Assembly: GCF_001687625.2 (NCBI RefSeq)
Contig: NZ_CP016538.2
Coordinates: 282,001 to 346,000 of the forward strand
Direction: 5' to 3'
Length of the DNA stretch: 64,000 nucleotides
Source: Planococcus maritimus
Lineage (GTDB): Bacteria; Bacillota; Bacilli; Bacillales_A; Planococcaceae
Part shown: positions 1,266-52,882 of the stretch, one piece after another
How positions within the stretch are numbered: position 1 is the stretch's first letter
Layout of the letters: the number at the start of each line of letters is the position of its first letter
Program-made: the position numbers and the translations under genes
The notes under the pieces: generated by a model
What the model was told of the DNA's origin: nothing
The model's input: the letters and a program-made list of their open reading frames with translations, nothing else
The model's database searches: none

Positions 1266-2011
1266 GTTATTGGGCTTTATCACTGACGCTCATTTTTGTT
1301 CTCATTCCTTTGCTCTTATCGAAAACATTGAATTTAGGACTCGGACGGGACATGACCGTTGCGACGCTGCGTTCGATTGTTCAACTGCTCGCCGTCGGGT
1401 ATGTGCTGAAATTCGTCTTCGACTCCGAAAGTTTGCTATATATTTTCTTGATGGTTGCACTGATGATTGTAGCGGCCACCCATAACGCGCAGAAAAAAGG
1501 GGCGGCCATCCAAGGAATTACTTGGAAAATCGCCGTCACCCTGATTTTTGTGGAAGTATTGACGCAAGGGATTTTGGTCGGCTTTAATATTACACCGGCT
1601 ACCGCGCAATACATCATTCCGATCAGCGGCATGGTGATCGGTAACTCGATGGTGCTGTCGATCTTGTTCTTGAACCGTTTCACAGCGGAAGTTGAAGATC
1701 ATCAGGACCAGACCGAATTGATCTTGTCGCTTGGCGGAACGCCGAAACAAGCAATTCACCGCCAGTTGATCAATTCGATCAAAGCGAGTATGATCCCGAC
1801 GATTGAGAGCCAGAAAACCGTTGGACTCGTCCAGTTGCCCGGCATGATGAGCGGGCAAATCATCGCGGGCGCAGACCCGATCCAAGCGGTGCAGTTCCAG
1901 TTGCTAATCATGTTCTTATTGTTGACGACAGCGGCTGTCACAAGCGTTTTCCTCGGATATTTATCTTATCCAACCTTATTCAATAAACGCATGCAATTAC
2001 TAAAAGGCTGA
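1262..2011 (+). CDS. fetB: Iron export permease FetB (UPF0014 family)
   Basis: A 249-residue polytopic membrane protein with about seven hydrophobic segments. It carries the family hallmark around residues 115-185: a PISGMVIGNSM stretch, then a LSLGGTPKQA loop and a VGLVQLPGMMSGQI segment. It forms the membrane part of the exporter with FetA. The ATG overlaps the fetA stop by 4 nt, so the two are co-translated. Length is normal for the family. A terminator hairpin overlaps the stop codon. Confidence 0.9.
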   Translation: MSYWALSLTLIFVLIPLLLSKTLNLGLGRDMTVATLRSIVQLLAVGYVLKFVFDSESLLYIFLMVALMIVAATHNAQKKGAAIQGITWKIAVTLIFVEVLTQGILVGFNITPATAQYIIPISGMVIGNSMVLSILFLNRFTAEVEDHQDQTELILSLGGTPKQAIHRQLINSIKASMIPTIESQKTVGLVQLPGMMSGQIIAGADPIQAVQFQLLIMFLLLTTAAVTSVFLGYLSYPTLFNKRMQLLKG

Positions 2012-2029
2012 CGCATAGTCAGCCTTTTT
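2002..2029 (+). terminator. fetAB terminator (left copy of a duplicated hairpin)
   Basis: Arms AAAAGGCTGAC and GTCAGCCTTTT enclose GCATA and end in a T run. The same stem (GGCTGA, 7 nt, TCAGCC) recurs at 2341-2366 on the other side of the repeat element. Confidence 0.9.
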
Positions 2030-2030
2030 C

Positions 2031-2338
2031 AGAGTGTTGAAGAAGTCTATTAATCAGTTATGAATTAAATTGGAAGCATCTTTTCAACATTTAAAAATCA
2101 GTAACCTCTCTAAGTATTTGGAGAAGTGTCCGCTCGTAAGCCCTTCTGCTCAATAATGCTGCGCATTACTTTCGCAAAGATAAGGTCTCCCGTAGGTCAA
2201 CCTTATCTTTCCTGTGGATCAGCGAGACGACCGAGACCCCGCAAGCAGCGAAGCGGCTGAGGAGGCTTGGGCGCGAGCCCACGGAAAGCGAGCGATAAGC
2301 TTCGGAAAATACGATTTCTAAACATTCTTGACAATCTA
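2031..2338. repeat. Dispersed intergenic repeat, copy A
   Basis: A stretch of about 308 bp without a gene between the convergent fetB and the 2381-3451 gene. Its core (2214-2314) is nearly identical, in reverse orientation, to 52353-52452, and related to the shorter element at 6681-6789. Shared landmarks are the left end GAGTGTTGAAGAAGTCTAT, a segment AGTATTTGGAGAAG, the GATCAGCGAGACGACCGAG segment and the ACGGAAAGCGAGCGATAAGC segment. Copy A has an extra hairpin (AAGATAAGGT ... ACCTTATCTT, about 2177-2210) that copy C lacks. It is bounded on both sides by the same terminator stem. No ORF is convincing inside it. Confidence 0.8.
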
Positions 2339-2340
2339 TG

Positions 2341-2366
2341 AAAGGCTGATATTTCGTCAGCCTTTT
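2341..2366 (-). terminator. Terminator of the 2381-3451 gene (right copy of the hairpin)
   Basis: Stem AAAGGCTGA / TCAGCCTTT with a 7-nt loop, the same stem and loop length as the fetAB terminator at 2002-2029 but with a different loop sequence. Its T tract on the minus strand is short, so termination is probably weaker. Confidence 0.6.
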
Positions 2367-18597: not shown

Positions 18598-18612
18598 AAA
18601 TGCATTCAAAAG

Positions 18613-18690
18613 AATATTCACTCATATAATAGCGGGAATATGGCCCGCAAGTTTCTACCGGTCCGCCGTAAACGGACTGACTATGGGAAG
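18613..18690 (+). ncRNA. Purine (guanine-type) riboswitch aptamer
   Basis: The conserved core is complete: CTCATATAAT (18621-18630), the P2 stem GCGGG/CCCGC around AATATGG, the junction GTTTCTACC (18651-18659), the P3 stem GTCCG...CGGAC and the closing GACTATGG. The C in ACTATG corresponds to C74, which pairs with guanine or hypoxanthine, so the aptamer should be guanine-specific rather than adenine-specific. It controls xpt-pbuX, as in B. subtilis. Confidence 0.95.
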
Positions 18691-18751
18691 CAATGGAACG
18701 AAAAGAAACCGCCTATTTTTAGTGCGGCTTCCTTTTGCGTTTCCTTTCGGG

Positions 18752-51472: not shown

Positions 51473-51600
51473 GCGAGTCACTCCTTTTACAGAATCTTGG
51501 GATGTTTTCACAATAGCAGATAAATCGTTCGGTTGCATGGACTTCCTGCATGGTTTGCTCTAAAATGGTCCATAGCACTGATAGTATCGGAGGGGAAAGA

Positions 51601-52278
51601 ATGAAATTACTTCAAGTTCGAAAAGGCCAATTTGTTTACTACAAAAACGAATTGCACAAAGTTTATTCCGTCAAGCCACTCGCTAAAAAATCGGTTTTGA
51701 TGTTCCGTGTCAAGGACATGGAACAAGTGGCAAGCCGCGCTGATGAAGTGTCGCTTTACAAACCGAAACATATGGATTCGTTCATGTTTTTCGGAGAGCG
51801 TTACACCTTGCGTGAAGACGTATCCGCTGAAGAAGGCGGCTACATTCTGATCGCTAAGCCGGACCCAGATTATATGGACCATTATTCCTTGAACGAGTTT
51901 GAGAAAATCGAAACAGTTGAAGGCAAGAATGTCATCACGAGCCGACAGAATACGGTCAAATCAAGAGAATTCTTAGTGATGGTTCCAGGACAAGAGCAAG
52001 GCAGCAACGATATCGCTTATTACGACAAAGGGAAAGTATCGGAAGAGCAGCTTCAGCAAGACGCCCAACTGGCGGAAGACCTGCGCGACAGAAGCTCGAT
52101 CCGTCCATCGATCGGTGACGTTTACTTGAACCTGGACAACACAGGAACGGCAATGGTTGTCGCAATTATGGGAGAAGAAGTGACGCTTGGCACAGGCGAT
52201 AAGCTCACATTCCACGATTTGCATAAAGCGGACAACTGGAGCTATCTCTACAACGTAGCAGACGGCGATTTCCGTTAA
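51601..52278 (+). CDS. Uncharacterised 225-aa protein with an SH3/KOW-like start
   Basis: A 225-residue cytoplasmic protein. The first 40 residues (LLQVRKGQFVYYKNELHKVY) look like the small beta-barrel at the start of EF-P and similar KOW-type proteins; the rest is mixed alpha/beta and ends in a second beta-rich part (DVYLNLDNTGTAMVVAIMGE). I recognise no family. The start at 51601 follows GGAGGGGAAAG; the frame runs 51 nt further upstream without a site. It is followed by the left copy of a duplicated terminator. Confidence 0.65.
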   Translation: MKLLQVRKGQFVYYKNELHKVYSVKPLAKKSVLMFRVKDMEQVASRADEVSLYKPKHMDSFMFFGERYTLREDVSAEEGGYILIAKPDPDYMDHYSLNEFEKIETVEGKNVITSRQNTVKSREFLVMVPGQEQGSNDIAYYDKGKVSEEQLQQDAQLAEDLRDRSSIRPSIGDVYLNLDNTGTAMVVAIMGEEVTLGTGDKLTFHDLHKADNWSYLYNVADGDFR

Positions 52279-52295: not shown

Positions 52296-52328
52296 AAAAA
52301 AAGACAACTTCATAGTTGTCTTTTTTTT
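52296..52328 (+). terminator. Terminator, left copy of a 30-bp duplication
   Basis: A7, stem GACAACT / AGTTGTC with loop TCAT, then T8. The 30 bp from A6 through T6 are identical to 52568-52597 on the other side of the repeat element. Confidence 0.92.
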
Positions 52329-52567
52329 CAGGCTATCGAGAAAGGTAGGAAGTCGTATTTTCCGAAGCTTATCGCTCGCTTTCCGTGGGCTCGCGCCCAA
52401 GCCACCTCAGTCGCCCTGCTCCTTGCGGGGTCTCGGTCGTCTCGCTGATCCACTGGAGTCGAGCGAACGCTTCTCCAAATACTAAGACATTTCGTTAATT
52501 TGTTCATTGTGGAATAGTGTCACATTCTTTTTATTAATAGATGATTATAGACTTCTTCAACACTCAT
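52329..52567. repeat. Dispersed intergenic repeat, copy C
   Basis: About 239 bp without a gene, inverted relative to copy A. The core 52353-52452 is nearly identical to the complement of 2214-2314, and the right end (GACTTCTTCAACACTC, complement of the left end of copy A) matches as well. It lies between two identical terminator hairpins and between convergent genes. Together with those hairpins it fills the 334-bp gap 52279-52612. Confidence 0.85.
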
Positions 52568-52597
52568 AAAAAAGACAACTTCATAGTTGTCTTTTTT
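52568..52597 (-). terminator. Terminator, right copy of the 30-bp duplication
   Basis: A6, stem GACAACT / AGTTGTC with loop TCAT, T6; the palindrome works on the minus strand for the acetyltransferase gene. Identical over 30 bp to 52297-52326. Confidence 0.9.
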
Positions 52598-52612: not shown

Positions 52613-52882
52613 TTATTTCACCAGCACATCCTGAAATTCTTCGGTGTCGTCGATGACTTTTTTGGCGTATGGGCATTGGGGATCTATTGATTTGCCTTCG
52701 TTTCGTGCATGCTCTACCATTTTACCGACCAATTCTTTGCCCATGCCTTGCCCACTAATTTCCGGGGATACTTCAGTATGGTCAACGGTCAGCACATCGC
52801 CGTTTTCGACATAGCTGATAAACCCAGCTTCTTCAGAGCCATCGAACATGGCAATCCGGTTGTCTTGATGTTGAAAGTCCAT
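52613..52882 (-). CDS. Small GNAT acetyltransferase (YjdJ/GNAT-CG type)
   Basis: An 89-residue minimal GNAT-like protein. LTVDHTEVSPEISGQGMGKELV contains the acetyl-CoA-binding QGxGxx loop, and DPQCPYAKKVI the Cys-Pro-Tyr motif of the short YjdJ-like subfamily. The acceptor is unknown. The start follows AAGGAGGAAA on the minus strand. Confidence 0.85.
   Translation of the reverse strand: MDFQHQDNRIAMFDGSEEAGFISYVENGDVLTVDHTEVSPEISGQGMGKELVGKMVEHARNEGKSIDPQCPYAKKVIDDTEEFQDVLVK

What the first reader, a model, noticed from the sequence alone, without database searches (positions are those of the whole stretch)
52296..52597. Repeat element flanked by an exact 30-bp duplication of a transcription terminator
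The 30 bp A6-GACAACTTCATAGTTGTC-T6 occur twice (52297-52326 and 52568-52597) and bracket a 239-bp non-coding element between two convergent genes. A simple reading is that the element inserted into a bidirectional terminator and duplicated it, leaving each gene with its own terminator. That would be a long, hairpin-shaped target duplication and a neat way for an element to be harmless. The element ends show only weak inverted similarity, and no protein is encoded, so mobilisation would be in trans.
Basis: partly seen in the sequence, partly recalled or inferred. Interest (0 to 1): 0.75.

Follow-up and report, generated by a model that had tools for sequence, protein, structure and literature searches.

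The report
Mobile element that duplicates transcription terminators
A 239-base non-coding mobile element in a Planococcus genome inserts into the hairpin "stop signals" at the ends of genes and copies the whole hairpin, so a terminator can remain on both sides, and a matching parent insertion sequence was found in related species.

Summary
The element (52329-52567) is one of 62 complete or partial copies found in this Planococcus genome. Of 47 copies with both ends, 41 have left and right flanks more alike than any of 600 control pairs: a duplicated terminator hairpin, different at each locus. In other Planococcus genomes it is 51 of 55. The focal site in P. maritimus has one hairpin and no element. 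Of 17 other loci located in a close relative, 12 are empty, each with one hairpin. The element is best read as a MITE of an IS1182-family insertion sequence: an IS in the genus has near-identical ends and the same GC-rich leader module, and once shares a terminator with a MITE, leaving three hairpins. Duplications (20-52 bp) are centred on the hairpin dyad in 19 of 19 IS and, within 1.5 nt, in 27 of 27 scorable MITEs. Hairpin structure therefore seems to set duplication length. Hairpin targeting by IS1182 elements is known, but IS1272 deletes the hairpin; whole-hairpin duplication I saw in print only as a hypothetical pathway. A new variant of a known kind.

The parts
52329..52567 (+). MITE, 239 bp (orientation chosen so that the GC-rich module follows the left end)
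   Evidence: Ends resolved as CAG...CTG by comparing copies; 3' terminal CTG is CAT in this copy
52297..52328 (.). left target duplication: bidirectional terminator-like hairpin A6-GACAACT-TCAT-AGTTGTC-T8
   Evidence: single copy at the orthologous empty site L139
52568..52597 (.). right target duplication: the same hairpin
52329..52344 (+). left terminal inverted repeat CAGGCTATCGAGAAAG
   Evidence: 10.6 bits with a weight matrix of IS1182 ends; the Planococcus IS end CAGGCTGTCGAGAAAC agrees at 14 of 16
52550..52567 (-). right terminal inverted repeat, ATGAGTGTTGAAGAAGTC (family consensus CAGAGTGTTGAAGAAGTC)
   Evidence: this decayed copy scores only 4.1 bits, the consensus 12.9; Planococcus IS end CAGAGTGTTGAGAAACCC
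52372..52461 (+). GC-rich inner module (consensus positions about 44-133), also in the leader of related IS1182 elements and elsewhere in the family without hairpin duplication
   Evidence: coordinates approximate
51550..52278 (+). upstream ORF (start uncertain, 51601 possible), ends 18 bp before the left hairpin; no NCBIfam match
52613..52882 (-). downstream convergent ORF, 89 aa; no NCBIfam match
2030..2340 (-). second copy of the family in the window, 311 bp, longer inner part
   Evidence: (L071)
2341..2366 (.). hairpin on the left-end side of the second copy (AAAAGGCTGA...TCAGCCTTT)
   Evidence: stems agree, loops differ; score 11, below the control maximum of 16
2002..2029 (.). hairpin on the right-end side of the second copy (AAAAAGGCTGA...TCAGCCTTTT)

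Best explanation
The element is a MITE (non-autonomous derivative) of an IS1182-family insertion sequence of Planococcus. A transposase acting in trans bound its imperfect CAG...CTG ends and inserted it at an intrinsic-terminator hairpin. The two strand transfers were at the 5' feet of the hairpin on the two strands, symmetrically about its dyad. Gap repair then left a complete copy of the hairpin on each side, so the duplication length is set by the hairpin (20-52 bp). The result is an element between two intact-looking terminators. Shown here: the insertion, the duplication, the empty sites, the dyad symmetry, and the match of ends and leader module with an IS that also sits at hairpins. Inferred: the transposase acting in trans, strand transfer at the feet of an extruded or single-stranded hairpin, and that both hairpins terminate transcription.
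For: Duplicated hairpin in 41 of 47 complete copies and in 51 of 55 in other Planococcus genomes. One hairpin at the focal empty site and at 12 of 12 empty sites among 17 mapped complete loci. Duplication centred on the dyad: 19 of 19 IS at offset 0; 27 of 27 scorable MITEs within 1.5 nt, 20 of them at 0. IS of the genus: left end identical over 15 bases to that of MITE copies with CAGGCTGTCGAGAAA, right end identical over the first 11 bases; hairpin stem of 8 or more beside 29 of 31 end rows printed; IS plus MITE in one terminator with three hairpin copies, the third with two differences. In the taxonomic family, 19 of 21 short IS1182 elements with both ends resolved have whole-hairpin duplications; their clade has support 94/93. 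GC-rich module in the leader of 12 of 19 of these at E < 0.01 and of the G001 and G036 IS (77 and 76% to the MITE consensus over 87 bp, E 2e-8 and 2e-7). MITE consensus ends against the IS1182 end matrix: only 1 and 4 of 127,970 window positions score as high.
Against: No transposase of this group was found in the own genome, so movement today is not shown. Six of 47 complete copies fall below the control maximum; by eye four (L011, L063, L071, L077) are decayed duplications and two (L023, L115) have a damaged right side. Two of 21 short IS (L209, L230) have unlike hairpins on the two sides. The G021 IS lacks the module. The IS has its transposase in two frames in the three near-complete copies, so its activity is unproven. 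An IS1182 member of similar transposase length (ISCaa15, 457 aa) is reported with 4-bp repeats (PMC3196728, table passage), so length of the protein alone does not predict the outcome. Some empty sites could be precise deletions between the repeats: G015 is empty at the focal locus although it is as close to the window genome as occupied G043 (96.4 and 95.5% in the neighbouring gene).
Confidence: 0.9

Rival explanations
1. Tandem terminators existed first and the element merely landed between them, or the hairpins belong to the element.
For: Most complete copies lie between two hairpins, so one copy alone could be read this way.
Against: The hairpin differs from locus to locus but matches its partner, and 13 of 13 empty sites examined for complete copies (focal in G015 plus 12 in G043) have one hairpin.
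Confidence: 0.02
2. Hairpin replacement as in IS1272: the hairpin is cut out and at most its halves flank the element.
For: The transposase family is the same, and IS1182 elements with long transposases here show no duplication (25 of 25 with direct-repeat score of 8 or less; anchored inverted stems of 8 or more in 3).
Against: MITE and short-clade IS copies have complete hairpins on both sides.
Confidence: 0.02
3. The element is moved by an enzyme outside the IS1182 family that happens to produce hairpin duplications; similarity of ends is convergence.
For: No IS1182 transposase of this group in the own genome; mobilisation is not tested. The shared module is also a dispersed repeat, so it could have been captured twice.
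Against: Shared ends, shared leader module, shared outcome, and adjacent insertion into one terminator in G001.
Confidence: 0.06
4. The inner GC-rich part is a functional structured RNA and the repeat is kept for that role rather than as a mobile element.
For: Very stable predicted fold of 52297-52597 (z -6.7 on the + strand and -5.2 on the - strand, flanking hairpins included) and a strongly conserved core.
Against: Only 3 of 32 consensus pairs show two Watson-Crick types in 37 copies; the only Rfam match at gathering score in the window is a riboswitch elsewhere; copies are polymorphic between species.
Confidence: 0.05

Closest known systems
IS1272 / TnSha1 (IS1182 family), Staphylococcus (PMC4923244, passages seen; PMC5678879, abstract, passages and discussion part 1 of 2 read)
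   Same: Transposase family; targets are hairpins without sequence consensus, several of them terminators
   Different: IS1272 deletes part or all of the hairpin and gives no target duplication; here the whole hairpin is duplicated
Pathway b in Fig. 13 of Wan et al. 2017 (PMC5678879, legend and discussion text read)
   Same: Predicts that joining at the 5' feet of the stem-loop duplicates the whole stem-loop at both ends of the IS
   Different: Given there as a possibility, no example in the text I read; here there are many, with empty sites
MITEPye1 of Paracoccus yeei (PMC11578231, passages seen)
   Same: Short non-coding element with IS1182-like ends, intergenic
   Different: 159 bp, 1-3 copies in the chromosomes, 4-bp direct repeats
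IS1182 family in general (ISfinder; direct repeats of 0-60 bp recalled, source paper not held; palindromic targets of some members cited in PMC4923244 and PMC5678879)
   Same: Long and variable direct repeats at palindromes would cover the present case
   Different: I could not check whether any listed member has a whole-terminator duplication; ISCaa15 has 4-bp repeats (PMC3196728, passage)
Group IIC introns (recalled)
   Same: Insert at terminator hairpins
   Different: Ribozyme-based retrotransposition without such a target duplication; no such RNA or protein found here

Membership tests
MITE | Short, no transposase gene | tested here: met
   239 bp, no ORF of 80 aa or more in the focal element; the 47 own copies with both ends are 221-384 bp
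MITE | Terminal inverted repeats | tested here: met
   Imperfect, 12 of 17 in the consensus
MITE | Target duplication with empty sites | tested here: met
MITE | Ends match those of an autonomous IS | tested here: met
   IS in G001, G021, G036; whether those IS are active is not known
IS1182 family (mobilising IS) | Transposase matches NCBIfam NF033551 | tested here: met
   Related short-clade transposase P0001: 478 bits, cut-off 270. The Planococcus IS matches in two pieces of 204-250 bits each, no single piece over the whole-protein cut-off
IS1182 family (mobilising IS) | Transposase moves this MITE | not testable with these tools
   Needs an experiment
IS1272-type hairpin replacement | Hairpin deleted, no target duplication | tested here: not met
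   Whole hairpins on both sides
Group IIC intron | Group II intron RNA or reverse transcriptase | tested here: not met
   Rfam at gathering score: only a purine riboswitch in the window; no large ORF in the element

The most novel reading that the evidence does not exclude
One DDE transposase family measures its target by DNA secondary structure: the two strand-transfer points are the two feet of a hairpin or cruciform, so duplication length follows the hairpin. Sub-clades of the family differ in which points they use, giving whole-hairpin duplication, loop-only duplication, or hairpin loss. High-copy MITEs of the first kind spread through a genome by doubling terminators, which spares the neighbouring genes.
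Probability: 0.65. Interest if true: 0.75.

Novelty: new variant of a known kind. Interest (0 to 1): 0.62.

Why it matters
A target duplication whose ends coincide with the feet of a hairpin, with lengths from 20 to 52 bp, points to a transposase that reads structure rather than sequence and has no fixed stagger. That makes a published hypothetical pathway (Wan et al. 2017, pathway b) directly testable. It also gives a simple reason why dozens of copies are tolerated: each insertion can leave a terminator on both sides. For annotation, duplicated terminators around a short repeat become a signature for finding such elements.

Tried and rejected
Plasmid and phage collections: no match to the element. 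A DDE_Tnp_1 (PF01609) search in 12 element-rich genomes: matches in 5 of 12, none in G000, G043 or G015. The related IS became clear only from a protein search with a family transposase and reading of its loci. Eight more loci found by the 3'-end pattern leave no room for a transposase: in 7 of 8 the 5' end lies 200-348 bp away, in L122 it was found later by eye. RNA-level covariation is weak. Divergence between the two hairpin copies is lower in stems (26 of 910 sites) than in loops (10 of 144), with 8 of 25 changed pairs still paired; suggestive only, because low-scoring and gapped pairs were left out. First tree: rows L209 and L090 were misread because their genes hold a stop, and were dropped; L230 stays in the whole-hairpin clade though its two hairpins differ. 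Long-group rows L235 and L253 were not scored (no boundary found; masked bases). One search uses complete copies only; one search also mapped partial copies, which I left out of the count. In one search the weakest empty site is L061 (hairpin match 10, second best 6). L120's duplication of 20 bp is probably cut short by a misplaced end. The one search count removes repeats by left-flank sequence, but orthologous copies in different species may count more than once. My gene caller labelled the focal locus co-directional; it is convergent.

Literature: 10 searches. In their listings and in passages of six papers (PMC4923244, PMC5678879, PMC10969869, PMC11578231, PMC2267715, PMC3196728) I saw no report of whole-terminator duplication by an IS1182 element or MITE. 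Only open-licence PMC papers were searched.

Full report
Observation. They sit between a + strand ORF ending at 52278 and a - strand ORF with its stop at 52613. Comparison of copies gives element ends CAG...CTG, so the focal element is 52329-52567, and its last three bases have drifted to CAT.

Copies in the own genome. A DNA search and two pattern searches gave 62 loci, complete or partial (sequences). This is a lower bound, since the DNA search scored 40 of 84 candidates. I compared about 75 bp on the left with 75 bp on the right of each copy. Of 62 copies, 42 score above the best of 600 mismatched pairs. Of the 47 with both end repeats recognisable, 41 do. The six others are L011, L063, L071 and L077, where a decayed duplication can be seen by eye, and L023 and L115, where the right side is damaged. 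The hairpin differs from locus to locus. In 46 of 47 cases at least one neighbouring gene ends towards the element (23 convergent, 23 co-directional, 1 divergent, simple ORF caller).

Other genomes. All 46 genomes of the genus searched, the own one included, have a match, but in many of them the match covers the core only. An exact-pattern scan returned Planococcus records only (90 stretches). Among 55 complete copies found in loci held from other Planococcus genomes, different in left flank, 51 have the duplicated hairpin.

Empty sites. The gene upstream of the focal site was found in 46 of 46 genomes; 30 loci were fetched and read. G043 has the element and both hairpins. G015 has no element and exactly one copy of the same 30 bp, with the flanks otherwise continuous. 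Loci L141-L150 hold other terminators and other repeat remnants; the more distant loci L151-L167 mostly show a single, different terminator and no copy of this element there. Of the 47 complete own copies, 17 had both flanks in the 800 kb of G043 that I fetched. Five are occupied there and 12 are empty. Each empty site has one hairpin: best match 10-36, second best 4-7.

What moves it. In the same taxonomic family, IS1182 elements with a transposase of about 450-460 residues start with CAG..TGT.GACAAA. I examined 28 loci, taken from the best-scoring matches and three from the genus; 21 had both ends resolved, and 19 of these 21 are flanked by a whole-hairpin duplication. The MITE consensus ends fit a matrix of these ends: 14.0 and 12.9 bits, reached by 1 and 4 of 127,970 window positions, which include the window's own two copies. 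The focal copy itself scores 10.6 and 4.1. Ends of two other IS1182 groups score below 0. In Planococcus a related IS was found near-complete in G001, G036 and G021, and it or pieces of it in 9 of 46 genomes. Its ends in G001 are CAGGCTGTCGAGAAACC and CAGAGTGTTGAGAAACCC. Of 31 end rows printed (some of them repeats of one end, and one the left end of a MITE), 29 have a hairpin stem of 8 or more beside the end; L389 and L396 do not. In G021 the IS is flanked by two copies of one hairpin; in G036 the two hairpins differ. In G001 the IS (L376 670-2329) and a complete MITE sit side by side with three copies of one terminator hairpin, the third with two differences. The own genome has no match to this IS and none to the related transposase; a general IS1182 search found one 24-bit remnant with a stop. 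Its MITEs may now be immobile.

Shared inner part. The MITE's GC-rich core (consensus 44-133) is also found between the end and the start of the transposase gene in 12 of 19 family IS at E < 0.01 and in the G001 and G036 IS, but not in the G021 IS. Matches to the MITE consensus occur in 55 of 121 genomes and 15 of 19 genera of the family, the own genus included; those listed outside the genus are matches to the core or part of it, and the loci read show no hairpin duplication around it. So the shared core supports common descent, but independent capture of a common repeat is not excluded.

Mechanism. In 19 of 19 IS the duplication is centred exactly on the hairpin dyad, with lengths 21-52 bp. 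In 27 MITE copies whose duplication could be set without gaps (of 47), the offset is at most 1.5 nt and is 0 in 20; lengths 20-41. A fixed stagger cannot give this. It fits strand transfer at the two 5' feet of a hairpin, as in pathway b of Wan et al. 2017 (PMC5678879, legend and discussion). Other IS1182 groups differ. Loci L087-L089, and less clearly L090, show duplication of the loop only, read by eye. In 25 scored copies of the long-transposase group no duplication is seen, and an anchored inverted stem of 8 or more in only 3. In a tree of 37 transposases each group is one side of a branch: whole-hairpin 94/93, long group 100/100, loop group (3 rows) 100/100 (the joins between groups are long branches and unsure).

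Place among known things. Hairpin targeting by IS1182 elements and an IS1182-type MITE (MITEPye1) are published. IS1272 removes the hairpin; MITEPye1 has 4-bp repeats (PMC4923244, PMC5678879, PMC11578231). ISCaa15, an IS1182 member with a 457-aa transposase, is listed with 4-bp repeats (PMC3196728, passage). I recall that ISfinder lists direct repeats of 0-60 bp for the family, which I could not check. What I did not see in print is the whole-terminator duplication documented with empty sites, its dyad symmetry, the high-copy MITE, and the link between outcome and transposase clade.

Noticed in passing
window 2002-2366: Second, longer copy of the family on the - strand, flanked by hairpins with agreeing stems and different loops (L071).
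   Followed up: yes
window 52372-52461; L351-L373: The GC-rich inner core is a repeat matched in 15 of 19 genera of the family, in the read loci of other genera with its own short arms and without hairpin duplication. Its nature is unexplained.
   Followed up: partly
L376, L377, L375: The transposase of the Planococcus IS is split into two frames at the same CATGGAAAAAAGC in all three copies (72-91% identical DNA), which looks like a programmed -1 frameshift site.
   Followed up: partly
L376 636-2640: IS and MITE inserted in one terminator, leaving three hairpin copies.
   Followed up: yes
L240 1226-3145: A long-group IS1182 element whose two flanks are inverted copies of each other over 59 bases.
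   Followed up: no
window 18602-18703: Purine riboswitch, 83.5 bits.
   Followed up: no
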